Below, one piece after another: positions 6,201 through 60,076 of a DNA stretch of 64,000 nucleotides. The notes under the pieces were generated by a model. It was not told the origin of the DNA, did no database searches, and saw only the letters and a program-made list of their open reading frames with translations. The DNA is from an uncultured Bacteroidales bacterium (GTDB lineage Bacteria; Bacteroidota; Bacteroidia; Bacteroidales; Paludibacteraceae). Location: the NCBI GenBank assembly GCA_902765485.1, contig CACWZZ010000001.1, positions 1-64,000 on the forward strand, given 5' to 3'. The translations under genes and the position numbers were made by a program. Positions within the stretch are counted from its first letter, which is position 1, and each line of letters begins with the position of its first letter.

Positions 6201-7474
6201 CAACAATCTATCTTAAATCGCATAAGGAAGAGTCGCTCAAACGCTTTCACCCGTGGGTGTTCAGCGGTGCGATTGCCCGTGTCGTCCTGGACGCCGCGCA
6301 TAAAGGTGAAGCGCCCGAAGAAGGCGAGTTGGTTGCTGTCCGCTCGGCGGCGAATGAGATTCTGGGAGTCGGACATTGGCAAATAGGCTCGATCGCCGTG
6401 CGTATCTTGGCGTTCGGCGTAGAGACCTTGCCTGCCGGTTTCTGGCGGGAACGTATTCGCGCAGCATACCAAATGCGAGAAGCATTGGGCTTAATCACCG
6501 ATCCTCAATTCTCAATTAACAACACCTTCCGTCTCATTCACGGCGAAGGCGATTTTTTGCCGGGGCTGATTGTAGATGTCTATGCAGAGACGGCGGTCAT
6601 TCAGGCGCACTCGGTGGGCATGCATGTCTGCCGGAACGAGATTGCCGAAGCGATCCTTGCCGAAGTGCCGCAAGTGCGGAATATCTACTATAAGTCCGAT
6701 GACACCCTGCCGTTCAAGGCGCCGGTAGAGGGTGAAAGAGTGGGGTGGCTTAAAGAACCAAGTGACCCATACCGCGAAGCAGATCGTTCGACCGCAGGGA
6801 GATTAGAAGTACCAAGTACCGGAGAGGAGTTCTGGTCGGTGGAAAATGGCTTGCAGTTCCGTATCGACTGGCTGCGGGGGCAGAAAACAGGTTTCTTTAT
6901 CGACCAGCGTGAGAACCGCGCACTCGTGGAGCGCTATGCCAAAGAAAAAGATGTGCTCAATATGTTCTGCTACACCGGCGGTTTCTCGCTCTACGCCCTG
7001 CGCGGAGGAGCCAAGGCGGTTGATTCGGTCGATGTGAGCCAGAAAGCGATTGACTTGGTGAACGTCAATGTGGCGAAGAATTTCCCGTCCGCAACGAACC
7101 ATACCGCGGTGGCTGCCGATGCCTTTGAGTACCTCACGGCGCAGAAAGCGCAGGGGCGCACGTACGATTTGATTATATTGGATCCGCCGGCATTCGCCAA
7201 GCATCGCGACGCGGTGAAAAATGCCCTGCGCGGCTACCAGCGTATCAACGCCAAAGCGATTGAGATGATCCGTCCGGGCGGTATCCTGTTCACCTTCTCT
7301 TGCTCGCAAGCGGTGGACAAAGAGGCGTTCCGTCTGGCGGTCTTCTCTGCGGCGGCGCAAGTGGGACGTAAAGTGCGGATCTTGCACCAGCTCCATCAGC
7401 CACAAGACCATCCCATCAATATCTACCACCCCGAAGGCGAGTACCTCAAAGGGCTTGTCCTCTATGTGGAATAA
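6197..7474 (+). CDS. RlmI-like 23S rRNA cytosine-C5 methyltransferase
   Basis: 425 residues. An N-terminal PUA domain (KSHKEESLKRFHPWVFSGAI) is followed by a Rossmann methyltransferase: SAM loop FCYTGGFSLYALRGGA, DPPAFAK motif and the FSCSQ motif with the likely catalytic cysteine. This is the RlmI/RlmK class of SAM-dependent rRNA methyltransferases. It is about 30 residues longer than usual. The excess lies in two low-complexity stretches, around 6500-6523 (DPQFSINN) and 6754-6822 (EPSDPYREAD to EVPSTGEE), which look like in-frame word-repeat insertions. ATGA overlap with the upstream gene. Confidence 0.85.
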   Translation: MTTIYLKSHKEESLKRFHPWVFSGAIARVVLDAAHKGEAPEEGELVAVRSAANEILGVGHWQIGSIAVRILAFGVETLPAGFWRERIRAAYQMREALGLITDPQFSINNTFRLIHGEGDFLPGLIVDVYAETAVIQAHSVGMHVCRNEIAEAILAEVPQVRNIYYKSDDTLPFKAPVEGERVGWLKEPSDPYREADRSTAGRLEVPSTGEEFWSVENGLQFRIDWLRGQKTGFFIDQRENRALVERYAKEKDVLNMFCYTGGFSLYALRGGAKAVDSVDVSQKAIDLVNVNVAKNFPSATNHTAVAADAFEYLTAQKAQGRTYDLIILDPPAFAKHRDAVKNALRGYQRINAKAIEMIRPGGILFTFSCSQAVDKEAFRLAVFSAAAQVGRKVRILHQLHQPQDHPINIYHPEGEYLKGLVLYVE

Positions 7475-7475
7475 A

Positions 7476-7510
7476 ATCTTCAAATTATCAAATTATCAAA
7501 TCTTCAAATA
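7476..7510. repeat. TCAAAT word repeat (intergenic)
   Basis: Four units of (T)CTTCAAAT or TATCAAAT between the methyltransferase stop and the exonuclease start. The same words recur in frame in sufB (8895-8937) and before the MFS gene (25871-25897). Confidence 0.7.
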
Positions 7511-7514
7511 GCAA

Positions 7515-8405
7515 ATGAACCTCGTTTGTTTTGATACAGAGACCACCGGTCTGGACGTGCAGAAGGATCATATCATCCAGCTCTCGCTCGTCAAAGTGGA
7601 CACCGCGGATTGGCATGTGATAGACACCCGCGACTGGTATATCCTGCCGGAAGGGGAGTTCACTATTCCCGCGGAGGCGGAAGCGGTACATCATATCTCC
7701 AAGACTTTCTTGCAGGAGAATGGCATTTCTCTTCGCAGCGTCTATGATGAGCTGATGGCGTTCACCGAAGGGTGCGATATCTTGTCCTATAACGGCAACG
7801 GCTTTGACGCACCTATATTGCATTATAACCTGAAGCGTATCGGCAAAGATTTTGTCTTTGACGGTCGCACATGGTATGACGCTCTGGCGCTGGAACGCAT
7901 TCACATGGCAGGTCAGATAGACCCTGAGACAGGTGAGAAATACCATTGCAATCTGACTGCGGCTTATACGCGTTATTACGGGCACCCCTTCGAGGGTGCG
8001 CATAACTCGCTGGACGATGTGATGGCTACCATTGAGGTCTTCAAAGCCCAAGTGGCGGCGCACAGCTGGGAATGGACGCAACGCGAAGAGTTCCACTTCA
8101 TCTCCTTTGACCGCTGGCTCATTAAACGGGGCGAATATTACTACCTCAGCCAAGGCGGGCACAAGGGTGAGTCCATTGAGTCCATGATGCGGATCGACAA
8201 GAGTTACTTGGAGTGGATAGTAGATAAATGCAAATGGACGGACGACCAGACCCGGCAGATCATCCTTGCGGTCATGGAACCTGGTAAATCTAGAAAAACT
8301 AGTTCTTCTAGTTCAACTAGTTCGTCTAGTCCTTCTAAGACTCCCTCGCGCGGCAAAAAACGTCCCAAAGGAACGATCACAGATGCCGATTTGAGCCTTT
8401 TTTAG
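7515..8405 (+). CDS. DnaQ-like DEDDh 3'-5' exonuclease with Ser-rich insert
   Basis: 296 residues. The exonuclease domain spans about residues 1-180: Exo I DTETTG (Asp7, Glu9), Exo II SYNGNGFDAP, Exo III HNSLDDVMA. This is the proofreading-type fold acting on DNA or RNA 3' ends. The region after 185 is a small accessory domain ending in a basic tail. A stretch of about 17 residues, SRKTSSSSSTSSSSPSKT, is encoded by CTAG-type word repeats (8288-8338) like those found between genes elsewhere in the window. The substrate is not predictable from sequence. Confidence 0.75.
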   Translation: MNLVCFDTETTGLDVQKDHIIQLSLVKVDTADWHVIDTRDWYILPEGEFTIPAEAEAVHHISKTFLQENGISLRSVYDELMAFTEGCDILSYNGNGFDAPILHYNLKRIGKDFVFDGRTWYDALALERIHMAGQIDPETGEKYHCNLTAAYTRYYGHPFEGAHNSLDDVMATIEVFKAQVAAHSWEWTQREEFHFISFDRWLIKRGEYYYLSQGGHKGESIESMMRIDKSYLEWIVDKCKWTDDQTRQIILAVMEPGKSRKTSSSSSTSSSSPSKTPSRGKKRPKGTITDADLSLF

Positions 8406-8630: not shown

Positions 8631-10094
8631 ATGGATGACTTAATCAAAGATATTACCTCCCAGGAGTACAAATACGGCTTCACGACCGACGTGGAGACGG
8701 ATATTGTGCCCGCTGGGCTGAATGAAGACATCATTCGGTTGATCTCTGCGAAAAAGGGTGAACCCGAATGGCTGCTGGAGTTCCGCCTCAAGGCTTTCCG
8801 CAAATGGCAGACCATGAAAGTGCCGACTTGGGCACATCTGGACATCCCGGAGATTGATTTTCAGGCAATCTCCTATTATGCCGCTCCGCGGACGAAATCT
8901 TCAAATTCTCAAATCTCCAAATCTTCAAATTCTCAACCGTCCGACGAGATTGATGCGGAGATCATGAAGACCTTCGATAAACTCGGAATCCCTTTGGAGG
9001 AGCGCGCTGCGCTGGCGGGTAACATGGCGGTCGATGCAGTCATGGACTCCGTTTCGGTCAAGACCACTTTCCGCGAGACCTTGGCGGAGAAGGGTATTAT
9101 CTTCTGTTCGATCTCCGAAGCCGTGCGCGAGCACCCCGATCTGGTGAAGGAATATCTTGGTTCGGTTGTGCCGCCGACTGACAATTTCTATGCGGCGCTC
9201 AATAGTGCGGTCTTCTCCGATGGTAGTTTTGTCTATGTGCCGAAAGGTGTCCGTTGCCCGATGGAACTGAGCACCTATTTCCGTATCAATGCTGGCAAAA
9301 CGGGTCAGTTCGAGCGCACACTCTTGATTGCCGACGAAGGCGCGTATCTCTCTTATTTAGAGGGCTGTACGGCGCCGATGAGGGACGAGAACCAGCTGCA
9401 TGCCGCGATCGTGGAGATTGTTGTGCGCAAGGATGCGGAGGTCAAGTACTCCACCGTCCAGAACTGGTATCCCGGCGACAAGGAAGGCAAGGGTGGTATC
9501 TATAATTTCGTTACCAAACGCGGTATCACGTACGAGAACGCGCGCCTGTCGTGGACTCAGGTCGAGACCGGGTCTGCGATCACATGGAAATATCCGTCCT
9601 GTATCCTCCGCGGCGATAATTCCACGGCGGAGTTCTACTCCGTCGCGGTGACCAACAACTACCAGCAGGCGGATACGGGCACCAAGATGATTCATATTGG
9701 CAAAAACACCCGTTCGCGCATTGTGTCCAAAGGTATCTCTGCCGGGCATAGCCAGAATGCGTACCGCGGACTGGTGAAGATGGGGTTGAAGGCAACAAAT
9801 GCCCGCAATTTCAGCCAGTGCGACAGCCTGCTTTTGGGTGATCAATGCGGCGCGCACACCTTCCCGGATATGATTATTTCGAATCCGACGGCTACGGTGG
9901 AGCACGAAGCAACGACCTCCAAGATCAACGAGGACCAGCTCTTCTACTGCCGCCAGCGGGGAATCAGTACGGAGGACGCCGTGGGACTGATCGTCAACGG
10001 TTATGCCAAGGAAGTGATGGACAAACTGCCGATGGAGTTCGCCGTCGAAGCCCAGAAACTCCTCCAAGTCACCCTCGAAGGCTCTGTCGGATAA
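8631..10094 (+). CDS. sufB: Fe-S cluster assembly scaffold SufB
   Basis: 487 residues, normal for SufB, the scaffold of the SUF complex that receives sulfur taken from cysteine. The beta-helix core is conserved: [57 protein letters not shown] at 8631 is chosen because it follows the terminator; upstream in-frame codons lie in the tRNA. Residues about 89-104 ([16 protein letters not shown]) are encoded by TCAAAT word repeats and sit at the end of the N-terminal domain, unlike any conserved part of the family. sufC and sufD are not adjacent in this window. There is no start-site RBS. Confidence 0.92.
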
Positions 10095-10658: not shown

Positions 10659-10761
10659 ACTGACCCAAGTCTGACCGCTGGCACCGACAGCGTAAAAAAG
10701 CGGATAAAATATAGAAATATAAAAGCGCAAGTGTGCGCCGATTAGCGTAATAAGCCAAAGC

Positions 10762-13368: not shown

Positions 13369-14211
13369 TTACTCTAAATCGATGTGCTCCGCCTGAACGG
13401 GAGCGGAAAGGAAGAGGGATGCGGATTGCGAGAAGCGGTCCGCATTTTCTGTGGTCAAATAGCGGCAGGAGCCGCCTTGCGAGAGTTGGGATTCGTACTC
13501 GGGATGGCGGCGGAGATAATCCGCGAGGCTCTTTGCTTCCAGATAACCCTGCGAAATAACCTGAATATCGCCGGCGGCAAAGCGCTTGCCGTTATTCTTG
13601 ATCCATTGGGCGATTTTCGGCAGCAACAAAGGATAGTGGGTGCAACCGAGGACAAGGGTGTCAATCTGCGGATCTTTCTCCAAGATCTGCCGCAGATAGA
13701 GGTCCACAAAATAGTCTGCGCCGGGGTTTAAGTGCTCGCCGTTCTCAATGAGCGGAACCCAAAGAGGGCAGGCTTGTTGGGATATTTCGAGATTTTGGAA
13801 GATCTTTTGCAGTTCAAGGACGTAACTTTCGGAACTTACAGTCGCGGGCGTGGCAAGGATGCCCACATGTCCGGTCTTGGTAATCGCCGGAACGGCTTCA
13901 ACGGTCGGACGGATCACGCCCAAGACATTTACCATTTTATCATTTATCAGCGGCAAGTCCTTTTGCTGGATCGTGCGAAGGGCTTTGGCTGAGGCGGTGT
14001 TGCAAGCAAGGATGACCAGCGCGCAATCATGGTCAAAGAGATACTTAACCGCCTGCAAAGTGTATCGGTAAATCACATCGAACGAGTGGGTGCCATAGGG
14101 CGCACGGGCATTGTCCCCCAAGTACAAGTAGTCGTACTGAGGCAGTTCCCGACGGATGGCATCCAAGATGGTCAAGCCTCCGTATCCGCTGTCAAAAATA
14201 CCGATGCGCAT
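13369..14211 (-). CDS. murI: Glutamate racemase
   Basis: 280 residues. It makes D-glutamate for peptidoglycan. The family hallmarks are clear: FDSGYGGLT near residue 6 with the proton-relay Asp, LGDNARAPYGTH, the first catalytic cysteine in ACNTAS and the second in LGCTHYPLL. Near residue 90 the segment INDKMVN, encoded by a TGATAAATG-type word repeat (13925-13952), looks inserted before the conserved VLGVIRPT. It is transcribed divergently from aqpZ, with overlapping promoters. Confidence 0.93.
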   Translation of the reverse strand: MRIGIFDSGYGGLTILDAIRRELPQYDYLYLGDNARAPYGTHSFDVIYRYTLQAVKYLFDHDCALVILACNTASAKALRTIQQKDLPLINDKMVNVLGVIRPTVEAVPAITKTGHVGILATPATVSSESYVLELQKIFQNLEISQQACPLWVPLIENGEHLNPGADYFVDLYLRQILEKDPQIDTLVLGCTHYPLLLPKIAQWIKNNGKRFAAGDIQVISQGYLEAKSLADYLRRHPEYESQLSQGGSCRYLTTENADRFSQSASLFLSAPVQAEHIDLE

Positions 14212-19131: not shown

Positions 19132-20493
19132 ATGGCAAAAGCAACGATCCAATATGTATGTTCGTCCTGCGGCGCAAAAGCTCCGCAGATGCTGGGTCGT
19201 TGCCCGGTCTGCGGCGAATGGGGCACCTACGAAGAGGAGATGGTGCAAAGCCGTCAGTCATCAGCTGTCAGCCGTCAGTTATCGGCATCGAGTGCCAAAC
19301 CGCAGCGGCTGCAGGAAGTGAAGGCGTCCGAAGAGATGCGGATCGACATGCATAACGGCGAACTGAACCGTGTCTTGGGAGGAGGACTGGTGCCGGGTAG
19401 TCTGGTGCTGCTGGGTGGCGAACCGGGTATCGGCAAATCGACGCTGGCGCTGCAAGTACTGATGCAGCAAGGGGAGCGGAAGACTTTCTATGCTTCTGGC
19501 GAAGAGAGCGTGCGCCAATTGAAACTGCGCGCAGAGCGGCTGGCAGGCAATGCGGAGAACCTCTATATATCCTCCGAGACTTCGCTGGAGCGGATATTGG
19601 ACCAAGTGAAAGAACTGGAGCCGGAGGTCGTAGTGATTGATTCGATTCAGACCATCGGAACAGAGGCAATAGAAGCGTCTATCGGTTCGTTGAGCCAGGT
19701 GCGCGAATGTGCCGCGCGGATCATGGAGTTCGCCAAGACGCGCAATATACCGTTCTTCATCATCGGACATATTAATAAGGAAGGTTCGCTCGCGGGACCG
19801 AAAGTGCTGGAACATATAGTGGACACCGTGCTGCAGTTCGAGGGTGACCAACACTATATGTACCGCATCCTGCGTGCGCAGAAGAACCGTTTCGGCTCGA
19901 CCTCCGAACTGGGCATCTATGAGATGCGTGCGGACGGTCTGCGCGAGGTGAGCAACCCTTCCGAACTGCTGCTCTCTACGGCGCGCGAAGGACTGTCGGG
20001 CATCGCGATTGCCGCGGCTGTCGAAGGAGTAAGACCATTCCTGATCGAAGTGCAAGCACTCGTCTCGTCTGCCGCTTACGGCACGCCGCAACGCTCTTCC
20101 ACGGGCTTCGACGGACGGAGACTGAATATGTTGCTGGCGGTATTGGAGAAACGGGTGGGATTCAAACTGCTGCAAAAAGATGTGTTCCTCAATATAGCCG
20201 GCGGACTGCGTGTCCAAGACCCGGCCATCGATCTGGCGATCATGGCGGCTGTGTTGAGCAGTAACATGGACATCGCTTTGGATGCAGGCACTTGCCTCTG
20301 CGGCGAAGTGGGTTTGGCGGGCGAGATTCGGCCTGTGACCAGACTGGAGCAGCGAATCACCGAGGCGCAGAAACTGGGATTCAAACGGATCCTCATTCCC
20401 GCGGAGCAGAAAGTGGACGCAAAGCGGTTTACGATTGAACTTGTGCCGGTGAAGAAAGTAGCAGATGCTTTCCGGACATTAATTAAGAGTTGA
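19132..20493 (+). CDS. radA: DNA repair protein RadA
   Basis: 453 residues. Zinc finger Cys10, Cys13, Cys24 and Cys27, Walker A GGEPGIGKST (95-104), Walker B VVVID (166-170), the RadA-specific KNRFG (251-255), and a Lon-protease-like C-terminal domain. It drives branch migration in recombination. Residues about 40-57 (SRQSSAVSRQLSASSAK) come from GTCAGCCGTCAG-type word repeats (19250-19286) inserted between zinc finger and ATPase. Its start is preceded by ATCATCAATCACTAATGG, also a word-repeat type sequence. Confidence 0.94.
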   Translation: MAKATIQYVCSSCGAKAPQMLGRCPVCGEWGTYEEEMVQSRQSSAVSRQLSASSAKPQRLQEVKASEEMRIDMHNGELNRVLGGGLVPGSLVLLGGEPGIGKSTLALQVLMQQGERKTFYASGEESVRQLKLRAERLAGNAENLYISSETSLERILDQVKELEPEVVVIDSIQTIGTEAIEASIGSLSQVRECAARIMEFAKTRNIPFFIIGHINKEGSLAGPKVLEHIVDTVLQFEGDQHYMYRILRAQKNRFGSTSELGIYEMRADGLREVSNPSELLLSTAREGLSGIAIAAAVEGVRPFLIEVQALVSSAAYGTPQRSSTGFDGRRLNMLLAVLEKRVGFKLLQKDVFLNIAGGLRVQDPAIDLAIMAAVLSSNMDIALDAGTCLCGEVGLAGEIRPVTRLEQRITEAQKLGFKRILIPAEQKVDAKRFTIELVPVKKVADAFRTLIKS

Positions 20494-21966: not shown

Positions 21967-24552
21967 TTGCGTAGATTAATCTATATATTGTTTGCGGTCT
22001 TGCTATCTGTGCCGATCTTTGCCCAGAGCGACAGCGTCGCTGTGCAGGAGATCGAATATGGCATGTCGCGTAAGACGTACGAGATAGCCGGAATCGCCGT
22101 GGAAGGAGCGGATAGCTATGAGGACTTCGTTCTCATCGGCTTCTCCGGTTTGGCGGTGGGCGATAAAATTGAAGTGCCGGGAGACCAGATTACCAAAGCC
22201 ATCAAACGCTTCTGGAAGCAAGGTCTGTTCTCCAATGTCAAGATCAAAGCCAGCAAAATCGAGGGCAACAAGATCTGGCTGGTGATCGAACTCGAGCAGC
22301 GTCCGCGTATCAGCGAAGTGCGGTACGAAGGTATGAAGAAAAGCGAACGCGAGGATGTCGAGGTGAAGACCGGTATCCGTCAGGGTTCGCAGATGACACC
22401 GAACTTGGAGGATCATGCCAAGACGGTGATTAAGAAATATTTCGCTGAGAAAGGTTTCCACAATACCGAGGTGCATGTCATCCAACGCAACGACCCCGAC
22501 CATCCGGGGTATGTCCGCGTGCTCGTGGCGGTGGATAAGAAGACAAAGACCAAAGTGGGGAAAATCTATATCACCGGCAACCACGCTTTGACCCACCGCC
22601 AGATCAACAAGGCGATGAAAAAGACCAACGACAACGACATCATCAACCTTTTCCGAACTAAGAAATTCGTTACCGAAGAGTACGAAAAAGACAAGTTGGC
22701 GGTGATCGAGAAATACAACGAATACGGTTATCGCGATGCCTATATCGTGGCGGATTCCGTAGTGCCGAACCCCGAAGATCCCTCGCGCGTGGACGTCTAT
22801 ATGACCATCAGCGAAGGAGACAAATACTATATCCGTTCGGTCAAATGGGTGGGAAATACCGTCTATCCGTACGAACTGCTGGATGCCACGCTGGGCGTCA
22901 AACCGGGCGATGTCTATAACCTCAAGACCCTCAACGACCGTCTGACCAACGACGACGATGCGGTCAGCAAGTTATATACCGACCGCGGATACCTGTTCTT
23001 CAACGTTGAGCCGGTCGAGGTGAACGTGGAGAACGACTCAATCGACTTCGAGATGCGAATGTACGAAGGCAAACCGGCGACCATCAATAATATTAAAATA
23101 GTAGGAAACACGCGCGTGTACGAGCACGTCGTGCGCCGCGAGTTATATACCAAGCCGGGTCAGCTATACAGCCAGTCGGATATTATGCGTTCGCTACGTG
23201 AGTTGGCGCAGATGGGACATTTCGACCAAGAGAAACTCGTGCCCGACATCCAGCCGAATCCGGAGGAAGGAACGGTGGATATTACCTACCAACTAGAGAC
23301 CAAATCGTCTGACCAGATCGAGTTCTCGCTCGGTTGGGGTGCTACCGGTCTTGTGGGCTCGTTGGGACTCAAGTTTACCAACTTTGCGATCCAGAACCTC
23401 TTCAACAAGAAAGCCTACCGCATTGTGCCGCAGGGCGAGGGACAAACCTTCTCTATTAACGCGCGCACGAACGGTATATATTATACGTCCGCGTCCATCT
23501 CCTTCTTGGAGCCGTGGCTCGGCGGTAAGCGACCGAACAGCCTCTCCGCAAGTATCTATTTCGCGAACCAAACGGGGTATTCGAGCCGGTACCAGAAGGC
23601 CTACCAAAACCTCTATAACACCTATTCGAACTATTACTACTACTCCGGCAACAGCAATTATTACCAGCAGCTGGCGGAGAGCGAGGCGGATAAAGATAAA
23701 TACCTCCGTACGCTCGGTGTCTCCATCGGTTATGGTAAACGTCTGCGCTGGCCCGACGACTACTTCACTTTCTATGGCGAGTTGAGTTACCAGATGTATA
23801 TGATGAAAGACTGGCCCTATTTGCTGATTTCGGATGGCACGAGCCATAACTTGGCGCTGAACCTCCAAATCTCGCGCTCGTCTATCGATAACCCGATCTA
23901 TACACGCCGCGGAAGCCAGTTCACCATCGGTCTGAAGATCACACCGCCGTGGTCGCTCTTCAGCGGTAAAGACTACAGCCAGTTATCTACTTCGGAGAAA
24001 TACCATATGATCGAGTATCATAAATGGAAATTCTCCGGCAAGGTCTTCACGCCGCTGACCAGGGACGGCAAACTGGTCCTCATGACCCGCGCCGAGTTCG
24101 GTTATCTGGGACATTATAACATCAATGCCAAATCGCCGTTTGAGTCCTTCTATATGGGTGGCGACGGTATGTCGGCGTACACCAGTTATTCCACCGAATA
24201 TGTCTCTATGCGTGGTTACTCATCCGGTTCGTTGACCCCGTACGATGTGACCACCGGACGTAACATGGGTTACCTCTATAATAAATTCACAATGGAGCTC
24301 CGATACCCGATTTCGCTGGAGCAGAACGCCACGATTTGGGCGCACGCCTTTGTGGAGGCGGGTAACTGCTTCTCGAATATTCAGGAGTACAATCCCTTTA
24401 ACCTCAAGCGTTCAGCCGGTGTCGGAGTGCGTATCTTCCTCCCGATGTTCGGTCTGCTCGGTATCGACTGGGGTTGGGGATTCGACGAAATCAACGGCTC
24501 CAAGCAGTACGGCGGTAGCCAGTTCCACTTCGTCCTCGGACAAGAATTATAA
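21967..24552 (+). CDS. bamA: Outer-membrane protein assembly factor BamA
   Basis: 861 residues from TTG (21967), chosen because the signal peptide (RRLIYILFAVLLSVPIFAQ) follows at once. About five POTRA repeats (to about residue 430), then a 16-strand Omp85 barrel with the VRGF-equivalent SMRGYSSGS near residue 750 and the ending SQFHFVLGQEL. It folds and inserts outer-membrane proteins. uppS ends 13 bases upstream; two OmpH-like chaperones follow, as in many Bacteroidota. Confidence 0.93.
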   Translation: MRRLIYILFAVLLSVPIFAQSDSVAVQEIEYGMSRKTYEIAGIAVEGADSYEDFVLIGFSGLAVGDKIEVPGDQITKAIKRFWKQGLFSNVKIKASKIEGNKIWLVIELEQRPRISEVRYEGMKKSEREDVEVKTGIRQGSQMTPNLEDHAKTVIKKYFAEKGFHNTEVHVIQRNDPDHPGYVRVLVAVDKKTKTKVGKIYITGNHALTHRQINKAMKKTNDNDIINLFRTKKFVTEEYEKDKLAVIEKYNEYGYRDAYIVADSVVPNPEDPSRVDVYMTISEGDKYYIRSVKWVGNTVYPYELLDATLGVKPGDVYNLKTLNDRLTNDDDAVSKLYTDRGYLFFNVEPVEVNVENDSIDFEMRMYEGKPATINNIKIVGNTRVYEHVVRRELYTKPGQLYSQSDIMRSLRELAQMGHFDQEKLVPDIQPNPEEGTVDITYQLETKSSDQIEFSLGWGATGLVGSLGLKFTNFAIQNLFNKKAYRIVPQGEGQTFSINARTNGIYYTSASISFLEPWLGGKRPNSLSASIYFANQTGYSSRYQKAYQNLYNTYSNYYYYSGNSNYYQQLAESEADKDKYLRTLGVSIGYGKRLRWPDDYFTFYGELSYQMYMMKDWPYLLISDGTSHNLALNLQISRSSIDNPIYTRRGSQFTIGLKITPPWSLFSGKDYSQLSTSEKYHMIEYHKWKFSGKVFTPLTRDGKLVLMTRAEFGYLGHYNINAKSPFESFYMGGDGMSAYTSYSTEYVSMRGYSSGSLTPYDVTTGRNMGYLYNKFTMELRYPISLEQNATIWAHAFVEAGNCFSNIQEYNPFNLKRSAGVGVRIFLPMFGLLGIDWGWGFDEINGSKQYGGSQFHFVLGQEL

Positions 24553-24594
24553 AACTAGTAAAACTAGATAAACTAGTTCGACTAGTTAAACTAT
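24549..24594. repeat. CTAGT word repeat between bamA and ompH
   Basis: Five units of AAACTAGT-like words directly after the bamA stop. The same word family recurs at 52787-52818, at 60043-60076 and in frame at 8288-8338. Confidence 0.75.
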
Positions 24595-24610
24595 AAAACA
24601 CCAGACAACA

Positions 24611-25147
24611 ATGAAAAAATTATCAATTCTCAATTATCAATTCTCAATTATAATTGCCGCTCTGCTCCTCTCTGGCACGGCTTTTGCTAAGGATCAATCG
24701 ATCGCGTATATTGACATGGCATATATCCTCAAAAACCTGCCGCAGTACGAGCAGGCGAACGAGCAACTGACGATGCTCTCCAAACGCTGGCAGAAAGAGG
24801 TGGATGCTGCTGCGCAGGAGGCACGCGTCATGACGACCAACTACCAGACGGAGCAGATCTTCCTCTCCGAAGCCATGAGACGCGAACGCGAACAGGAGAT
24901 AGTGAAGAAAGAGCAGGAGGTTCTGGAACTCAAGCGCAAGTATTTCGGACAGGAGGGCGAACTTTACAAGAAGCGCGAAGCGCTCATCAAACCCATACAG
25001 GACGAGATATACAATGCCATCCAAGACCTGGCGAACGAGAAACGAATTGACATCGTCAAAGACCGCTCCGCCGACCCGGCACTCATCTACATGTCCTCCA
25101 AACTGGACATCTCCGACCAAGTCCTCCAAAAATTAGGGGCAAAATAG
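24611..25147 (+). CDS. OmpH/Skp-like periplasmic chaperone, copy 1
   Basis: 178 residues. Signal peptide about 1-26, then a short strand (SIAYIDMAYILKNLP), the long coiled-coil tentacles rich in Glu, Lys and Gln, and a C-terminal strand (RIDIVKDRSADPALIYMS), the OmpH (Skp) layout. Skp holds unfolded outer-membrane proteins for BamA. The signal peptide's n- and h-region (SILNYQFSII) is encoded by TCAATTCTC word repeats (24619-24655), so a repeat has become part of an export signal. Confidence 0.85.
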   Translation: MKKLSILNYQFSIIIAALLLSGTAFAKDQSIAYIDMAYILKNLPQYEQANEQLTMLSKRWQKEVDAAAQEARVMTTNYQTEQIFLSEAMRREREQEIVKKEQEVLELKRKYFGQEGELYKKREALIKPIQDEIYNAIQDLANEKRIDIVKDRSADPALIYMSSKLDISDQVLQKLGAK

Positions 25148-25230: not shown

Positions 25231-25722
25231 ATGAAGAAAATTATTATCACAATCCTGCTGGCTCTGCCGATGCTCGCCAGCGCACAGAAATTCGGTCACA
25301 TCAACACACAGGAGCTCTTCGCTCAGATGCCCGAAGTAGCACAAGTGAAACTGAAAATGGACACTATCAACTCGCAGTACGAGACCCAGTTGGCTTCCAT
25401 GAACGAGGAGATCCAAAAGAAGTATCAGGACTACCAGGCACAAGAAGCAACCATGGCGGACGCAATCAAACAAATCCGTCAGCAGGAACTGCAGGAGATG
25501 CAGCAGCGCATTCAGCTCTTCTATCAGACAGCAGAGCAGGATATCCAGAAAAAACAACAGGAGTTGCTGGCTCCGGTGCACGAGAAAATGACCAAGGCTA
25601 TCAAGGCTGTCGGGGAGCGCGAGGGATACACCTATATCTTCGACTCCGCCGCAATGGTACATATCGGCGCAGATGCAACCGACCTCATGCCAGCAGTTAA
25701 AAAAGAACTCGGAATTAAGTAA
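25231..25722 (+). CDS. OmpH/Skp-like periplasmic chaperone, copy 2
   Basis: 163 residues with a normal signal peptide (ending ASAQ), the FGHINTQELFAQMPE strand, Gln-rich coiled coil, and the end strand YTYIFDSAAMVHIGADATDL, all typical of OmpH. A pair of OmpH-like genes after bamA is common in Bacteroidales. The two copies differ enough that they may serve different clients. Confidence 0.87.
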   Translation: MKKIIITILLALPMLASAQKFGHINTQELFAQMPEVAQVKLKMDTINSQYETQLASMNEEIQKKYQDYQAQEATMADAIKQIRQQELQEMQQRIQLFYQTAEQDIQKKQQELLAPVHEKMTKAIKAVGEREGYTYIFDSAAMVHIGADATDLMPAVKKELGIK

Positions 25723-25755
25723 TTCTCAATTCTCAATTCTCAATTCTCAATTAAC
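25721..25755. repeat. TCAATTC word repeat
   Basis: Four AATTCTC units end one base before the ATG of the small gene at 25756. The same words occur in frame at 24619-24655 and 6500-6523. Confidence 0.75.
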
Positions 25756-37040: not shown

Positions 37041-38192
37041 TCAGGCTTCTAAAAGGTACTGTAGTTCCTGTACAAAATAGCGCACATCTTCGTGATACCG
37101 GCTCAGTTCGTTCCAAGCTCGGCGGAACTGGTCGCGGTTGTTCTTGGTTGTATAGTCTTTGGACAGTTCTTCGCTCATCCACCGTGTGATATCCGGCACG
37201 GAGCACGCGCGGCGCACGTATCCCATCTGCCGCATGGCATAGATGGCGGCGGAGAGGCATTTATAGTAATCCCACTCTTTTTCTTGAAGGCGCAGGTATT
37301 GGGTCAGTTGGCGTTGCTGTAACTCCGGTGTCTCTTCGGTCCAGAAACGCACCGGTTTCTGCGGCTTGAGGTGCTTGGTGACGAACCGCTGCCAATCGAG
37401 CATCCATTGCGCAAAGAGGCGTTGCGAGTCCTCGCTGAGAGCGTTCACTTCGTCCATGACGAATCCCCAATCAGTCTCTTGCTCTACTATGAAATTGCGG
37501 TGCTTGGGTGCCCGAGGTTGCGAACCCGGCACCTCGCGCAGTTGCGCCTGATAACTCGTCCAAACCCATTTCAGGTAGCGGAACATGATATCCTCTGCCG
37601 CCTCGCCTTCGAACACCAAGGTCGGGGATGATTTGTCATCGGTCATTGGTGATTGATTATTGGTCTCATCGGCTAGTGCGGTCACTAAGGCGGGATCTGT
37701 CCAGTCCATTTGGATGAAGCGTTGGCGGCGTGTCTCTACCCGCGCTGCGGCGAGCAGCCAACTCGCAAAAGGAGCCTGCCACGGGCAGCACTCCCATATA
37801 TGTGCGCAGAAAGTCTCGGTGACCAGATAGCGCATATAGCGGTCGGTGAGGCGTAAAGCCAAGTCCAGAAGCAGGCGGTTCGGACAGATGTCCGCAAAGC
37901 TCATTTTTTCAGTCGCGACGGATATATACGCCTCGCTCAGCAGCCGTGTCTCCACGGTGAGCAGACCCCATTCCTCGCGGCGCACCTCGCGCTCGTATTT
38001 CTTGATCCACGCTATCTGCTCCGCTTCGCTGTCGATGGCGATGCCGCGGCGGTTGCCTTCGTCCGTGTCCACCAGTAACGCAGATACCAACGCCGCGCCC
38101 AGCACGCCGCCGATCTCGATGTCCTTCCCCCGAACCATTAGCCGGTGGGAGGTATAGGACATATCTTCGCTAAAACGGTAGTCTTCTAACAT
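37041..38192 (-). CDS. Unrecognised protein with its own long leader
   Basis: 383 residues, cytoplasmic by composition, rich in Trp, Arg and Glu, with mostly helical segments. No family recognised. A segment near residue 175 (NNQSPMTDDKSSP) is encoded by TCATTGGTGATTGA-type word repeats (37626-37670) and looks inserted. A consensus minus-strand promoter lies about 120 bases upstream, and the leader contains two AAAAAGTGTAAT sites. Nothing links it clearly to the esterase downstream. Confidence 0.6.
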   Translation of the reverse strand: MLEDYRFSEDMSYTSHRLMVRGKDIEIGGVLGAALVSALLVDTDEGNRRGIAIDSEAEQIAWIKKYEREVRREEWGLLTVETRLLSEAYISVATEKMSFADICPNRLLLDLALRLTDRYMRYLVTETFCAHIWECCPWQAPFASWLLAAARVETRRQRFIQMDWTDPALVTALADETNNQSPMTDDKSSPTLVFEGEAAEDIMFRYLKWVWTSYQAQLREVPGSQPRAPKHRNFIVEQETDWGFVMDEVNALSEDSQRLFAQWMLDWQRFVTKHLKPQKPVRFWTEETPELQQRQLTQYLRLQEKEWDYYKCLSAAIYAMRQMGYVRRACSVPDITRWMSEELSKDYTTKNNRDQFRRAWNELSRYHEDVRYFVQELQYLLEA

Positions 38193-47126: not shown

Positions 47127-47302
47127 GAAAAAAGGACGAAGAAAAAAGCGACAGGATTTTTAGTGCTTTTTTTCTTCCCTTGTTTTACAAGGGAGGAGAG
47201 AGGGAAGATCTGTCGCTAGTCGGGTCGAGGGTCGAGAGGGAAGAAAGGCACATTTTGCTATGGAGCTATGCTTCAAATGACTATATATAGAGAGGATAGA
47301 AC

Positions 47303-47384
47303 GATATATCGACAGATCGAGGTATCGACATATCGACAGACCGGGATATCGACAGACCGAGATATCGACATATCGACAGATCGA
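47303..47384. repeat. ATATCGACAGACCG word repeats upstream of the DUF3987 gene
   Basis: About six 14-16 bp units built from ATATCGACA and GACCGAG words, ending 47 bases before the ATG. A relative (ATATCGATATGCCGAG) occurs at 51205-51250. Confidence 0.75.
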
Positions 47385-49462: not shown

Positions 49463-50392
49463 TTATAGCAATACGCGGTTGAACTCTTTGGGAACAGGGG
49501 ACTCAAAGCGCACTTTCTTCTCCGTCACGGGATGGATGAACTCCAGCACTTTGGCATGCAGGCAAAGGCGGTCAATAGGGCTGGATTCATTGCCGTGACC
49601 GTACTTACGGTCTCCCACGACGGGGCAACCTTTGGAGGCGAGATGGACACGGATCTGGTTGGTTCTTCCGGTCTCCAGATGGAGTTCGACTAATTGAAAG
49701 TTGAAAGTTGAAAGTTGAGAGTTGAAAGAAGTCTCATAGTTCGAAGTCTTTAGCACCTTGTAGTTGGTGATGGCGATGTCGCCTCCGTCGTCCACCGGCG
49801 AGGAATAGACTACGGCATTGCGTTTGTCTTCCGTCAGCCAAGTGGTGATCTTTCCTTCGCGCGGTTCGAGGATTCCTTCGGCAAGCGCTATATATGTGCG
49901 GTCTGTGACGAGCTGGCGCCAGTATTCGCGCATGTAGTGCTGCAACTCCTCGGAGCGGGCGAAGACGAGCAGACCGGATGTCTCGCGGTCGAGGCGATGG
50001 ACGACATAGATATTTGCGCGCGCGTTCTGTTTTTTTACATACGCGCGGAGAATGGACATGACGGTTGTCTCCGAGCTGCCCGGCGTAGAAGCGACGGTGA
50101 GAAGTCCCGGTTGCTTGTTGACCACAATGAGGTCGTCGTCCTCATAGACGATTTTGAGTTTAGGGTGGGTGAGTTGGCTGTTACCTCGACCGGATGAGAC
50201 GGTTACTATATCGCCCGGTTTGAGGGCAAAATCATGCCTTGTCTGGATGCCTGCGCCCACTTTGACGCGGCGTTGACCCAATAATTGTTTTACGGACGAG
50301 CGAGCCATGCCGCCCATCTTAGCGATCAGAAAGTCCATGAGCGCCATCGGCTCTGTGACTTTTAATACGGTATCGGCTTTTCTTATTTTCAT
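49463..50392 (-). CDS. RluA/RluC-type pseudouridine synthase
   Basis: 309 residues. S4-type RNA-binding domain (MDFLIAKMGGMARSSVKQLLGQRRVKV) then the catalytic domain with VVHRLDRETSGLLVFAR (catalytic Asp in HRLDRETSG) and TGRTNQIRVH. It converts uridines of rRNA or tRNA to pseudouridine; the target is unknown. Residues about 220-236 (ETSFNSQLSTFNFQL) come from TTGAAAGTTGAAAG word repeats (49691-49731), inserted in the catalytic domain between YKVLKTS and ELHLETGRTNQ. The start codon too lies in a word repeat (50377-50421). Confidence 0.85.
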   Translation of the reverse strand: MKIRKADTVLKVTEPMALMDFLIAKMGGMARSSVKQLLGQRRVKVGAGIQTRHDFALKPGDIVTVSSGRGNSQLTHPKLKIVYEDDDLIVVNKQPGLLTVASTPGSSETTVMSILRAYVKKQNARANIYVVHRLDRETSGLLVFARSEELQHYMREYWRQLVTDRTYIALAEGILEPREGKITTWLTEDKRNAVVYSSPVDDGGDIAITNYKVLKTSNYETSFNSQLSTFNFQLVELHLETGRTNQIRVHLASKGCPVVGDRKYGHGNESSPIDRLCLHAKVLEFIHPVTEKKVRFESPVPKEFNRVLL

Positions 50393-50421
50393 ATTTTCTT
50401 ATTTTCTCATTTTCACATTTA
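50377..50421. repeat. ATTTTCTTATTTTC word repeat covering a start codon
   Basis: Five TTTTC(T/A)(T/C)A units between the PnuC-like gene and the pseudouridine synthase. It encodes the first residues MKIRK of the latter. Confidence 0.7.
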
Positions 50422-51192
50422 GCGTGCCACAAATCGTTTGAGCCATCCCATGTTCTCGGGTTTGGTGGCTTTGATCCATGCGATACCTGCCATGCCGTTG
50501 ATTACCAGGAAGAAGGTGAACAGCACGATAGAGAAGATATTTCCCAGCAGGATGAATAGCCCGATGCCGGCGAGACTGTAAATCAGCCAGTAGATCCACG
50601 AGTCGGTCTTGCGATAGATGAGCCAGTAGTTAGCCAGGAAAGAGGATGAGATGAGAAGTCCGTTGAGGATTAACCCCACCCAGACCCTCCCCTCAAGGGA
50701 GGGAAAGAGAGAACCATGGTTGACATAGTTCATAATTATAAGATCTCCTGCGGTGATGAAAATGAGCATTGCGACGGATAAGATCAAGCGAGGTGTGTCC
50801 AGAAATTTCGGTTCGAATGAAGCACCTCCGTCGTCTTTCGAGCGGCTCCATTTATAGATCGACATCATCTGGAAGGGGATGAAGACGAAGAAATAGAGGA
50901 AAGTGCTGTCATATTGCTCTTGCAACAGGAATTGTATTCCCAGCAGAAAGGACATAACGATTCCGGCAAAAAAGCCGGTGTAGTTCTTCGGATCGCGGAC
51001 GGTCAGGATATATGCCACGCCGATGATCGAGGCGGGAATACCAACCAACCAAGCAGTATCTTCCCACTTCAACAAATGCAGCGAAGGGAAGAAAAATTCT
51101 ATGGTCCATAACAGACCCAATAATGCTCCGAAAAGGATGAGTGAAACGATGGTGTTGCGGCCGAGTGCGCGCCAAAGAGATGTGTTTTGCAT
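50419..51192 (-). CDS. PnuC-like nicotinamide riboside transporter
   Basis: 257 residues, about 7 membrane segments. The PnuC features are the FIPFQMMSIYKWSRS turn and RKTDSWIYWLIYSLAGI in the last third. A hydrophilic insert near residue 160 (NHGSLFPSLEGRVWVG) is encoded by the CCCTCCCCTCAAGGGAGGG word (50672-50710) and falls in a loop. Substrate (nicotinamide riboside or similar) is inferred from family. Confidence 0.72.
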   Translation of the reverse strand: MQNTSLWRALGRNTIVSLILFGALLGLLWTIEFFFPSLHLLKWEDTAWLVGIPASIIGVAYILTVRDPKNYTGFFAGIVMSFLLGIQFLLQEQYDSTFLYFFVFIPFQMMSIYKWSRSKDDGGASFEPKFLDTPRLILSVAMLIFITAGDLIIMNYVNHGSLFPSLEGRVWVGLILNGLLISSSFLANYWLIYRKTDSWIYWLIYSLAGIGLFILLGNIFSIVLFTFFLVINGMAGIAWIKATKPENMGWLKRFVAR

Positions 51193-51204: not shown

Positions 51205-51250
51205 TTATCGATATATCGATATGCCGAGATGTCGAAATATCGAGATGTTC
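51205..51250. repeat. ATATCGAT word repeats
   Basis: Iterated ATCGATATATCGATATGCCGAG-like words between the PnuC-like gene and the L31 terminator, related to those at 47303-47384. Confidence 0.65.
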
Positions 51251-51560: not shown

Positions 51561-51575
51561 AAAAATCTACGATTT

Positions 51576-51643
51576 TCTGCTTTCAGCTTTCAGCATTCAG
51601 CTTTCAGATTTTCTCTGACGGCTGAGGGCTGACGGCTGATGGC
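51576..51643. repeat. Two adjacent word-repeat blocks (TTTCAGC and CTGACGG)
   Basis: Four TTTCAGC(A/T) words (51576-51610) and three GGCTGACGG/GGCTGAGGG words (51614-51643) between L9 and L31. The same words occur at 55375-55402 and in frame in radA. Confidence 0.75.
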
Positions 51644-58500: not shown

Positions 58501-59985
58501 GGATATGGCTCCGGCCATGTGGTAGTGGGAGGTAAGAAAGAAATGGTCTATGTCTTGATCCAGGAGCAGGCGCATGACGCCCATCTGACACTCCCGTGGA
58601 CCGGCGCACGATACACGATCGCTTCCGATTCGATCCTGATGGATACGACGGCGATCATCTTCCCCGATGTACACCTGACGGATGCGGAGGGGCATCCGGT
58701 GCGGGTTAACGGAGCGGTGCACCATGACCAGTTCCATGATTTTGTGCTGGCGCTGCATGTTGATTGCACGGATGCACTGGTCTTCGATTCGGACGAACCC
58801 GGAGAGATGCTCCGTGGTAAGGTCTATGCAACCGGACATGTGGATGTCACCGGGCATGAGTCGAATATCGTGGTGGCGGCAGATGCGCGGACTTCGAAGA
58901 ACAGCCATTTCCGCCTCTCGCTGGATAATGCTTCCTCGGCGTATGAGTCCTCGTTCGTTCATTTCCTGTCGGCGGGTGATACGATTAAGATAGCGCCGGA
59001 AGATACGATCCACCATACGATCGAGACGGCGCGACCGGAGCGGTGTCTGGTGAAACTCAATCTGGACCTCAATCCTTTACTTCTGTTCCAACTCGTCTTG
59101 GGCGAACGGAACGGCGATATGATCCAGGCGCGGGGAACGGGTGCGCTGCAGCTGTCTTATGACACCAACTCCGGCGATGTGTCTCTCTTCGGAACGTACG
59201 ATCTGGAGCAGGGCACGCTCTCTTATACCGTCGGCAATGTGATCCGTAAGGAGTTTACGGTGGGCGAAGGGTCTAAACTTATTTTCTCCGGTAATCCCTC
59301 GAACCCGCAACTGGACGTGACGGCGAAATACCGAGTTACCGCGAACCTGCGAGATCTCTTTGGCGACGATGCCTCCCAGTTAGCTACCTCGCGGTCGAAT
59401 ATACCGGTGCTGACCTGTCTGCACATGACGGGACAGCTGAATAACCCGATTCTCTCCTTCTCCTTGGAGTTCCCGCTTTCGGACCAGGCGATCCAGCAGC
59501 AGGTGCGCCAGATCATCAATACCGACGAGATGTTGATGAGGCAGGTGATTTACCTTCTGGTCTTCGGACGTTTCTTCACGCCGGATTATATGAATACCCA
59601 GTACGCGACGACGCTGAACTCCACCTATTCGCTGCTCTCTTCTACGGTCACGGGTCAGATCAACGCATGGCTCTCCAAACTGACCAACATGCTCACCCTC
59701 GGAGTGGCGATCCGTACGGATGGCGAAGGCGCTTCGGCGAGCCAGGAATATGAGGCGCAGTTCCAATTACAACCGGTGGATAGGCTGGTGATAAACGGCA
59801 ATGTGGGCTATCGGTATAATGACATCTCGAACCAGCCGTTCTTCGGTGATCTGGATGTGGAGGTGCTTCTGACGGAAGACGGTCAGCTGCGGCTCAAGGG
59901 TTACACCCATACCGTCGATAAATATTCGCTCCGCCAGGCTTCGACAATCCAAGGCGTCGGACTGGTATGGAAGATCGATTTCTAA
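55597..59985 (+). CDS. tamB: TamB-like translocation/assembly protein
   Basis: 1462 residues from ATG 55597. An N-terminal membrane anchor (VLYILGVMIVAVLLVSGMFLAAL) is followed by more than 1200 residues of repeating beta strands (AsmA/TamB-type bridge) and a DUF490 C-terminal domain (GTLSYTVGNVIRKEF, SFSLEFPLSDQAIQQQVRQII, TSTIQGVGL near the end). TamB-like proteins span the periplasm and carry phospholipids or help barrel insertion. The start is chosen from the promoter; a codon 18 bases earlier lies at the transcription start. Confidence 0.85.
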   Translation: MNRVLYILGVMIVAVLLVSGMFLAALSSDRVETAAVQLATAELSRALGTNAQVGGVEYRFPARLTIRDIYLEDQQGDTLAFVGEAFAQFSPLALRHGEIRFSHVRLKDVVADVHRLPDSTWNYQFLVDAFASEEQQEKSPFNSLIAVKDVQLDNIRLRYEDYEALISHADMDLHRFSAQMLDAEITELAAVVNKKSDSRSPLVVEDLDAHVILTDSMLNVPMVSARLPQSKLDISEIALRLSPKEAKLSAPFHIDAQLVPSDIALFVPAVKTLQRPISLAGTVSGSVDSLAFGDMAVRYNGKKIVEGDISVTGLPDLTNPFLRANLTDVHTNAAQLQDFLSQLYGRPIRLPKEVHRLGDIHYRGLAQGQLHDLTLHGAFRTALGAISTDGTFRSDSLFEHMEYDARVVGRNFRLGKMLNVPKLAKVTLDMSSKGQIDKGVFSGEVKAHAREITYNNYTYADLRIDGTLQPRRYQGKFAIDDPHLKMAFDGVVNLRERDPEVNFNLRCRHFDTSPLSAENPLRTSFALAVDMNGKRVDEVSGYMVLDSLFLATQRDSALMKQMTLLVSADATNSKAITLRSDYLNVQLDGVFRYADIVPAFTAMANHYLPAAVDAPNRKWQPVSFRLRADGSELSHVQHLFNAPFTLSDNPSLRAEADLSPRDMNHSPFSLSFDAPSVEAGGRAIRNISVAMNTPGDQLALDISAEADSMHTVLAFQAFRDTLMTHIAFSSSITRPEETDEPQTIREKQQAMLAEQRAGAYGGDLHFLTRFDRYKKAPLIDLFCLPGTVILRDSVYTLGESRLTYCAADTTLAIDHFLFEGAGQHLYAHGVGSRRASDTLSVDLQKIDASYVVPFILPQKTIMFNGLLTGSADITSLFRRPQINTQIHIDDMGLNNCIFGPAEVDLHITDSLAFHADVFKPHMPSARRVALDGKALFDGSGVWNLDMTTDSVPLDFINHWTSTVLRDLDGYGSGHVVVGGKKEMVYVLIQEQAHDAHLTLPWTGARYTIASDSILMDTTAIIFPDVHLTDAEGHPVRVNGAVHHDQFHDFVLALHVDCTDALVFDSDEPGEMLRGKVYATGHVDVTGHESNIVVAADARTSKNSHFRLSLDNASSAYESSFVHFLSAGDTIKIAPEDTIHHTIETARPERCLVKLNLDLNPLLLFQLVLGERNGDMIQARGTGALQLSYDTNSGDVSLFGTYDLEQGTLSYTVGNVIRKEFTVGEGSKLIFSGNPSNPQLDVTAKYRVTANLRDLFGDDASQLATSRSNIPVLTCLHMTGQLNNPILSFSLEFPLSDQAIQQQVRQIINTDEMLMRQVIYLLVFGRFFTPDYMNTQYATTLNSTYSLLSSTVTGQINAWLSKLTNMLTLGVAIRTDGEGASASQEYEAQFQLQPVDRLVINGNVGYRYNDISNQPFFGDLDVEVLLTEDGQLRLKGYTHTVDKYSLRQASTIQGVGLVWKIDF

Positions 59986-60005
59986 AAAACGCCCACCATA
60001 CACAT

Positions 60006-60043
60006 AAAAATAACGCCCTTTCGCAAAAAGGCGTTATTTTTTT
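60006..60043. terminator. Bidirectional terminator between tamB and pnp
   Basis: AAAAATAACGCC and GGCGTTATTTTTTT form a 12-bp stem with T-runs on both strands. Confidence 0.85.
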
Positions 60044-60076
60044 CTAGTTCTACTAGTTTATCTAGTTTGACTAGTC
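60043..60076. repeat. CTAGT word repeat
   Basis: Four CTAGTT(T/C) words between the terminator and the pnp stop codon. Confidence 0.75.

What the first reader, a model, noticed from the sequence alone, without database searches (positions are those of the whole stretch)
6500..60076. A window-wide system of short 'word repeats' that occur between genes, over start and stop codons and in frame inside conserved genes
At least ten word types (TCAATTC, TCAAAT, CTAGT, TTTCAGC, GTCAGCCG, TTGAAAG, ACAATT, GACCGTATT, ATATCGACA, CCCTCCCT/GGGAGGG) recur, each as 3-6 imperfect units of 7-16 bp. Intergenic: 7476, 13291, 24549, 25150, 25721, 25871, 47303, 50377, 51205, 51576, 52787, 55375, 60043. In frame: 6500, 6754, 8288, 8895, 13925, 19250, 24619, 29721, 30432, 32353, 36931, 37626, 48341, 49691, 50672. 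No frame is broken in any of these, so the additions look to be either tolerated or selected.
Basis: partly seen in the sequence, partly recalled or inferred. Interest (0 to 1): 0.8.

Follow-up and report, generated by a model that had tools for sequence, protein, structure and literature searches.

The report
Swapping DNA repeat words inside genes
A rumen bacterium and its relatives carry many short repeated DNA words scattered between and inside genes; each genome has its own favourite words, and different species hold different words at the same spot of the same protein, so the words seem to spread and replace one another quickly.

Summary
The window (an uncultured rumen-type Bacteroidales MAG) has 21 short tandem arrays; 40 Markov-3 shuffles average 0.15. 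The density holds over 22% of the genome (152 arrays).

The new result is turnover. The same linker of SufB, DnaQ, MurI or RadA holds different word arrays in different congeners (39 of 105 segments against 16 of 525 controls). Against a strain mostly 94-97% identical, arrays are swapped, gained, lost or rewritten at 10 of 48 sites and change length at 11 (sorted by hand). Words are genome-specific: outside this genome, heptamer arrays match in 35 of 269 same-genome pairs and 40 of 12,273 others. One word has 43 hits here and none in 39 of 61 genomes.

It works like cyanobacterial STRRs and other heptamer repeats, but with several words per genome and many arrays inside genes. Best explanation: arrays spread by templated copying, expand by slippage and are filtered by selection. 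The copying step is inferred. MutS is present (30 of 31); Ku was not found (0 of 31).

The parts
7480..7509 (.). TCAAATTA-type 8-base array between the RlmI-like and DnaQ-like ORFs
   Evidence: TRF score 46; same length with 2 substitutions in G059
8299..8337 (.). CTAGTTCTT-type 9-base array in frame, C-terminal linker of the DnaQ-like exonuclease
   Evidence: TRF score 50; net +12 bases in G059; TCAAATCC-type array in L033, 9-base ACTCCGATT-type in G034
8895..8936 (.). TCAAATTC-type 8-base array in frame in the SufB linker
   Evidence: TRF; SufB by NCBIfam; other words at the same linker in congeners, 12 of 30 with an array
13926..13949 (.). weak TAAATGG-like repeat in MurI (glutamate racemase)
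   Evidence: TRF score 32; other words or GGGAGGG hairpins at this place in congeners, 6 of 30 called arrays against 6 of 150 controls
19249..19278 (.). GTCAGCC-type 7-base array in frame in the RadA linker
   Evidence: TRF score 39; ATATCGG-type array in G059 and L033; 15 of 30 congeners with an array
24550..24599 (.). ACTAGTT-type 9/18-base array beside the stop codon of ORF 21967-24552
   Evidence: TRF scores 51/61; one substitution in G059
24618..24655 (.). AATTATCAATTCTC array in frame in the N-terminal, signal-peptide-like part of an ORF with a weak Skp-family match
   Evidence: TRF score 69; NF008047 E 4.5e-7; identical in G059; signal-peptide reading is mine
25721..25752 (.). AATTCTC heptamer array at the end of an OmpH ORF, before the next ATG
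   Evidence: TRF score 64; one unit fewer in G059
32358..32386 (.). ACAATTN heptamer array in frame in a TatD-family gene
   Evidence: TRF scores 38/51; no array in G015, TAAATGG-type repeat in G034
37631..37665 (.). ATTGGTC heptamer array in ORF 37041-38192
   Evidence: TRF score 35; 2 substitutions in G059
47302..47384 (.). ATATCGACA-type 8/24-base intergenic array, the longest in the window
   Evidence: TRF scores 82/98; one partial second match in the genome at G000:C16
49694..49728 (.). CTTTCAA heptamer array in frame in a pseudouridine synthase gene (PF00849)
   Evidence: TRF score 63; absent from G034 and G015 at this place
50378..50420 (.). TTTTCTTA-type 8-base array over the start of ORF 49463-50392 (minus strand)
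   Evidence: TRF scores 60/44
51206..51248 (.). TATCGATA-type 8/16-base intergenic array
   Evidence: TRF scores 41/51; small differences in G059
51574..51643 (.). TTTCAGC array followed by CTGACGG array beside the ribosomal protein L9 gene
   Evidence: TRF scores 55, 44, 51; units of the second array differ in G059
60039..60081 (.). CTAGTTTNN 9/18-base array beside the PNPase gene
   Evidence: TRF scores 38/56; 9 bases longer in G059
62562..62594 (.). GCTGANN repeat in the last part of a Big_2-domain ORF (62484-65105, minus strand), replaced by CTTGGTA x4.6 in G059 at equal length
   Evidence: Alignment; Pfam; the window side is below the array cut-off
36944..36962 (.). CCCTCCC..GGGAAGGG hairpin in frame near the N-terminus of a GDSL-lipase-like ORF
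   Evidence: Pattern scan, 12 such hairpins in 478,628 bases; Pfam; present unchanged in G059
50672..50703 (.). CCCTCCCCTCAAGGGAGGG hairpin in frame in an NMN-transporter-family gene (PF04973)
   Evidence: other sequence at this place in G034 and G015

Best explanation
The words are arrays of a fast-evolving, dispersed class of short tandem repeats (units mostly 7 to 9 bases). In this genus they are found inside protein-coding genes as well as in spacers. Shown: the arrays far exceed chance; each genome has its own set of words at unlinked places; one site holds different words in different species; array length changes fast; coding copies mostly keep the frame. Inferred: an existing array serves as template and part of it is copied into a new place by template switching at short matches; it then grows or shrinks by strand slippage. 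Selection removes most copies except those in spacers, gene ends and loose linkers, so the same tolerant sites are filled again and again. Some alleles also move between species by recombination (28113, perhaps RadA).
For: Excess over shuffles. Same-word sharing: 66 of 1,176 heptamer-array pairs in G000 against 0.00104 for random places; leaving G000 out, 35 of 269 same-genome pairs against 40 of 12,273 different-genome pairs (the earlier count with two loci misassigned, 35 of 264 and 40 of 11,963, had permutation p 0.0005). AAGTACC/AAGTGACC word: 43 hits in G000, none in 39 of 61 genomes, no reversed-control hits. AGCCAAC word: 28 hits in G015, 0 in G000, none in 54 of 61. No flank homology in 45 same-word pairs. 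Same linker, different words: 39 of 105 segments against 16 of 525 controls. Gaps of 3 or more bases 9.8 per kb in array sites against 0.23 in other coding DNA. Length changes of 15, 15, 15, 21 and 45 bases among 12 AAGTACC places. Perfect heptamer arrays end at any point of the unit, unlike whole-unit insertion.
Against: No copying event has been seen with a clean empty donor-recipient pair; most swaps could also be deletion plus a separate birth, or allele exchange. Flank identity is lowered beside some changed sites (28113 right 0.75, 62562 right 0.80, 88823 left 0.71, 216721 right 0.60), and four of the ten changed sites lie in one 92%-identity block. G059 and G034 share one insert with its near flanks, which is recombination or common descent. 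At least two AAGTACC arrays (L257 and G000:C9:13351) lie before similar C-terminal tails with similar left flanks, so gene-family duplication or conversion may have carried them. End phases also fit erosion by substitution. Same-genome sharing comes from 10 genomes, chiefly L087, G015 and L085. No enzyme is identified.
Confidence: 0.5

Rival explanations
1. Ordinary long simple-sequence repeats: chance seeds grow by polymerase slippage at each place independently, and linkers keep them because they tolerate length change.
For: Unit-number change is frequent. Heptamers are reported as the commonest long unit in many bacteria, with slippage proposed (Mrazek 2007 as told in MacGregor 2015, passage). 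Near a G034 site without the array, the flank already resembles the word (L271).
Against: Independent seeds would not give the same word at many unlinked places of one genome and not in its congeners. MutS is present in 30 of 31 genomes, so loss of MutS is not the cause; MutL was not searched.
Confidence: 0.22
2. Arrays move mainly as alleles: congeners exchange short gene tracts by recombination, and arrays at tolerant linkers travel with them.
For: G059 and G034 share the 28113 insert and near flanks; G059 and L033 share the RadA allele. Lowered flank identity at some changed sites.
Against: Does not explain the same word at unlinked, non-homologous sites. Flanks are 0.91-0.98 identical within 100 bases on both sides at 19246 and 85726.
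Confidence: 0.18
3. A transposable or palindromic element (MITE, REP or Rickettsia palindromic element type) inserts the arrays.
For: GGGAGGG hairpins sit at some of the same linkers (RadA in G035, MurI in G036 and G055; L257 and L264 sites) and may be such an element.
Against: Word arrays have no fixed sequence, length or ends, and no evident terminal inverted repeat or target duplication in the cases read. Transposases were not searched for.
Confidence: 0.05
4. The arrays are kept because they do something, such as control of translation or switching of gene expression.
For: TAACTGA repeats elsewhere lie mostly just before start codons and a translational role is suggested (MacGregor 2015, abstract); some arrays here lie at gene starts (24618, 50378).
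Against: Words at one site are unrelated between species, encode unrelated peptides, and many species lack any array there.
Confidence: 0.05

Closest known systems
STRR heptanucleotide repeats of cyanobacteria (one passage of PMC2670836; Calothrix words mentioned in PMC4692102; Mazel 1990 recalled)
   Same: Tandem units of usually 7 bases at many places; function unknown; more than one word per genome in Calothrix
   Different: In the passages seen they are described in intergenic or promoter regions; here 71 of 139 heptamer arrays of the genus were called inside ORFs, and words are swapped at orthologous sites
TAACTGA direct repeats of Beggiatoaceae, cyanobacteria and five Bacteroidetes (MacGregor 2015, PMC4679880; abstract and passages)
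   Same: Dispersed heptamer arrays, strain-specific positions, no evident transfer mechanism; Paludibacter is among the hosts; one set lies inside a PurC gene
   Different: One dominant word, and in the main genome mostly just before start codons; here many words per genome and many in-frame arrays
GGGNATC heptamer repeats of Xanthomonas and Nostoc (Rehm 2015, PMC4692102; abstract and passages)
   Same: Heptamer arrays over the whole genome with variable unit number; long arrays not at the same genes in two related species
   Different: G-rich, four-unit preference, under-represented in coding regions; here words of many compositions
Rickettsia palindromic elements (three passages of review PMC10969869)
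   Same: In-frame insertion into unrelated genes
   Different: About 150 bp, families with a conserved peptide; the word arrays have no fixed sequence, length or peptide

Membership tests
Dispersed heptamer-type tandem repeats (STRR / long simple-sequence repeats) | Short tandem units, mostly 7 bases, far above chance | tested here: met
   period 7 is the commonest period (43 of 152 in G000), though periods 9 and 11 are also common
Dispersed heptamer-type tandem repeats (STRR / long simple-sequence repeats) | Same unit at many unlinked places of a genome | tested here: met
Dispersed heptamer-type tandem repeats (STRR / long simple-sequence repeats) | Mainly intergenic | tested here: not met
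   71 of 139 heptamer arrays of the genus called inside ORFs, 36 at gene edges, 32 intergenic; other Bacteroidales 10 of 69 inside (simple ORF caller). This is usual for the known cases, not a strict requirement
Dispersed heptamer-type tandem repeats (STRR / long simple-sequence repeats) | Variable unit number between close strains | tested here: met
Transposable or palindromic element (MITE, REP, RPE) | Fixed element sequence or terminal inverted repeats | tested here: not met
   Array sequence and length vary freely; 28 arrays of one word read. The GGGAGGG hairpins are a separate class and may qualify
Transposable or palindromic element (MITE, REP, RPE) | Target-site duplication | tested here: inconclusive
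   None evident in the filled/empty pairs read, but no systematic test
Mismatch-repair-deficient repeat instability | Loss of MutS | tested here: not met
   MutS over cut-off in 30 of 31 genomes; the miss is 54% complete. MutL not searched
Ku-dependent end joining with templated inserts | Ku protein | tested here: not met
   0 of 31 genomes; of 14 control genomes only B. subtilis rings

The most novel reading that the evidence does not exclude
These bacteria have a transposase-free copy-and-paste process that writes stretches of resident word arrays into new genomic sites, so that each lineage's vocabulary spreads through its genome and repeatedly rewrites the same protein linkers with new sequence: a genome-wide generator of new protein segments.
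Probability: 0.3. Interest if true: 0.85.

Novelty: new variant of a known kind. Interest (0 to 1): 0.62.

Why it matters
How heptamer-type repeats spread through bacterial genomes is open; MacGregor 2015 says of its own case that no mechanism is evident (abstract). This genus, with 60 further species searchable and one relative mostly 94-97% identical, is a natural experiment in which birth, growth, replacement and loss of arrays can be read site by site, with the reading frame as a selection filter. It also shows a source of new sequence in conserved bacterial proteins, and it warns that odd linker inserts in such MAG proteins can be real repeat arrays.

Tried and rejected
Loss of MutS: rejected. 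Ku end joining: Ku not found. Duplication of arrays with their flanks: 0 of 45 same-word pairs in the G000 sample share a flank, although two AAGTACC arrays outside that test lie in similar gene ends. Whole-unit insertion with blunt ends: not supported by end phases, but substitutions blur that test. Assembly artefact: thought unlikely, because arrays recur in MAGs of different projects with conserved flanks; not tested with reads. RNA family: only two tRNAs reach Rfam cut-offs in the window. Reading-frame preference of the AAGTACC word: inconclusive, because the frame picker excludes frames with stops and some strand choices looked wrong. Literature: searches listed no paper on in-frame heptamer arrays as a genome-wide feature of Bacteroidetes; one search gave MacGregor 2015, which mentions one set inside PurC. 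The library lacks most subscription journals, so I make no claim that this was never described. Lin and Kussell 2012 is not held.
Full report
WHAT THE WINDOW IS. The window is bases 1-64000 of contig C1 of an unnamed 2.12 Mb metagenome-assembled genome, G000. Its best public match by SufB is a congener, MAG RUG13776, titled uncultured Bacteroidales bacterium, 88-95% identical to the window over blocks longer than 300 bases. Sixty further species of the genus were searched; 58 of the 61 genomes gave a SufB match, one of them (G021) only at the level of a paralogue. Near relatives are titled Bacteroidales or Paludibacteraceae; that the habitat is the rumen is inferred from titles such as RUG (recalled meaning).

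THE OBSERVATION. TRF lists 69 rows at score 30 or more. With stricter rules (score >=40, period 6-20, >=2.5 copies, >=20 bases) there are 21 arrays, against mean 0.15 and maximum 1 in 40 third-order Markov shuffles. Five are called inside ORFs, against mean 0.1 and maximum 1 in 20 synonymous-codon shuffles. Two of the 17 are 11-mers, mainly an intergenic class (24 of 31).

GENOME AND GENUS. In 478,628 bases of G000 (22%) there are 152 arrays: 43 of period 7, 13 of period 8, 30 of period 9, 31 of period 11, 35 others. Density is 3.18 per 10 kb in G000, 2.07 in stretches of congeners and 1.12 in other Bacteroidales, where 27 of 70 loci have none. Among heptamer arrays, 29 of 49 in G000 and 42 of 90 in congeners were called inside ORFs, against 10 of 69 in other Bacteroidales (Fisher p 2e-7 pooled). 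ORFs were called by a longest-ORF rule that overcalls coding (93% with its laxer setting), so the contrast matters more than the share.

GENOME-SPECIFIC WORDS. Two heptamer arrays in G000 share their commonest unit in 66 of 1,176 pairs, against 0.00104 for random places. Leaving G000 out, same-genome pairs share it in 35 of 269 and different-genome pairs in 40 of 12,273. The 35 come from 10 genomes, chiefly L087 (8), G015 (7) and L085 (6); pairs closer than 300 bases were dropped. In the earlier count (35 of 264) the most reached in 2,000 permutations was 9. Two words were followed through 61 genomes. AAGTACC+AAGTGACC (23 bases, up to 2 mismatches) has 43 hits in G000, 27 in G059, 19 in G034, 13 in G022, 12 in G008, 11 in G018, a few in 16 others and none in 39; reversed controls gave none. 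AGCCAAC (21 bases, 1 mismatch) has 28 hits in G015, 6 in G035, 5 in G002, 1 or 2 in four others and none in 54, among them G000 and G059; there was one control hit, in G049. Hits overlap within arrays: by my count the 43 fall in 31 places. I read 28 of the 31: flanks differ from place to place, except that L257 and G000:C9:13351 lie before similar tails. In the G000 sample, 45 same-word pairs gave no flank homology.

ONE SITE, MANY WORDS. Four linkers were compared in congeners. Arrays were called in SufB 12 of 30, DnaQ 6 of 15 (15 further loci gave no segment), MurI 6 of 30 and RadA 15 of 30: 39 of 105, against 2 of 150, 5 of 75, 6 of 150 and 3 of 150 random segments of the same genes (16 of 525). 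Words differ: at SufB TCAAATTC, AGCCAAC, CCAACGA, AATGATGCC, AAAGTCG; at RadA AGCCGTC, ATCGGAAT, TCGAAATA, AAAGTAC, GTGAAAG and 16-base words. Some species have a GGGAGGG hairpin instead (G035 at RadA; G036 and G055 at MurI). The threshold in this call was low (score 26), so some calls are weak. Loci were returned only for the 30 best-scoring genomes, of 58, 55 and 57 with a match. Places in a Mur ligase, RlmI- and RlmL-like, TatD and pseudouridine synthase genes behave alike in up to eight relatives.

TURNOVER BETWEEN CLOSE STRAINS. G000 C1 and G059 align over 131,416 bases in blocks of 92-99.5% identity, mostly 94-97%. (score >=36) lists 49 rows, which are 48 sites. Sorted by hand: 9 identical, 18 with substitutions (one also with a 1-base gap), 11 with changed length (at 25155 an 11-base duplication beside the array), 10 swapped, gained, lost or rewritten (8899, 19246, 28113, 62562, 85726, 87241, 87572, 88823, 194306, 216721). 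Repeats on both sides but of different words: 19246, 62562, 85726, 87241, 216721. Four of the ten lie in one 92% block. Gaps of 3 or more bases occur at 9.8 per kb in array sites (34 in 3,467 bases), 0.23 in other coding (28 in 121,688) and 0.96 in other spacer DNA (6 in 6,261); substitutions are 8.2%, 3.5% and 3.9%. Of 17 coding rows printed there, 14 have a net change that is a multiple of 3. For 12 AAGTACC places with a G059 counterpart, 5 kept the length, 5 changed by 15, 15, 15, 21 or 45 bases, and 2 were replaced, one by another word and one by a hairpin (which holds 20 comparisons including 7 with G034 and 1 with G004; those with G034 and G004 are more diverged and mostly differ).

HOW IT MIGHT WORK. 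Slippage explains length change but not shared words at unlinked sites. MutS is present in 30 of 31 genomes and Ku in 0 of 31. Perfect heptamer arrays end anywhere in the unit (remainders 0-6: 8, 8, 6, 10, 17, 7, 15 of 71), where whole-unit insertion would give 0 in 56%. That fits copying of an arbitrary stretch of a template array, but also erosion and slippage at short repeats. Flank identity of 0.91-0.98 beside 19246 and 85726 speaks for local replacement; lowered identity beside 28113, 62562, 88823 and 216721, and alleles shared by G059 with G034 (28113) and with L033 (RadA), speak for some exchange or common descent. I hold copying plus slippage plus selection as most likely (0.5), the copying step being inferred.

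COMPARISON WITH WHAT IS KNOWN. Heptamer repeats are known in cyanobacteria (STRR), in Xanthomonas and Nostoc, and in Beggiatoaceae, with TAACTGA also in five Bacteroidetes including Paludibacter (abstracts and passages only). MacGregor 2015 reports Mrazek 2007 as finding heptamers the commonest class in most genomes and units of a multiple of three likeliest in coding DNA. In this genus 7- and 8-base units are frequent inside genes, with several words per genome and replacement at fixed sites. I file it as a new variant of dispersed heptamer-type repeats, not as a transposable element.

Noticed in passing
window 5200-5330 and 48780-48880; L132 4229-4414: Clusters of nonamer repeats (GACCGTTTT, CGGTCAATC and the like) with the second half an inverted copy of the first, so that whole arrays could form a hairpin. 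The 5200 piece has several 90-97% identical copies in G059.
   Followed up: partly
window 36944, 50685; 12 places in the 478,628-base sample: CCCTCCC..GGGAGGG hairpin of about 20 bases with CCCCACCC-like neighbours, in frame in some genes and sitting in other species at the linkers that hold word arrays here.
   Followed up: partly
window 49264-49465 and 10681-10935: Dispersed elements of about 200 bases with several to many copies in G059 and other congeners; not identified.
   Followed up: no
L257, G000:C9:13351, window 62484-62600: Word arrays lie just before a short C-terminal tail (KVLRNGQLLIIRG-like) that I recall as resembling type IX secretion tails; no call tested this.
   Followed up: no
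L085, L087, L090: Other Bacteroidales also show a favourite heptamer (AAAACGG in 5 of 5 heptamer arrays of L087, AAAACTG in 4 of 8 of L085, AATTCTC in 3 of 7 of L090), mostly outside ORFs over the whole set (59 of 69).
   Followed up: partly
window 28113; L116, L113: The Mur ligase insert and its near flanks are practically identical in G059 and G034, although G034 is about 80% identical elsewhere, which suggests recombination between species.
   Followed up: partly
window 8527-8601: tRNA-Cys found by ARAGORN did not reach Rfam's tRNA cut-off, and the SufB ORF as listed (8580) overlaps it, so SufB probably starts later.
   Followed up: no
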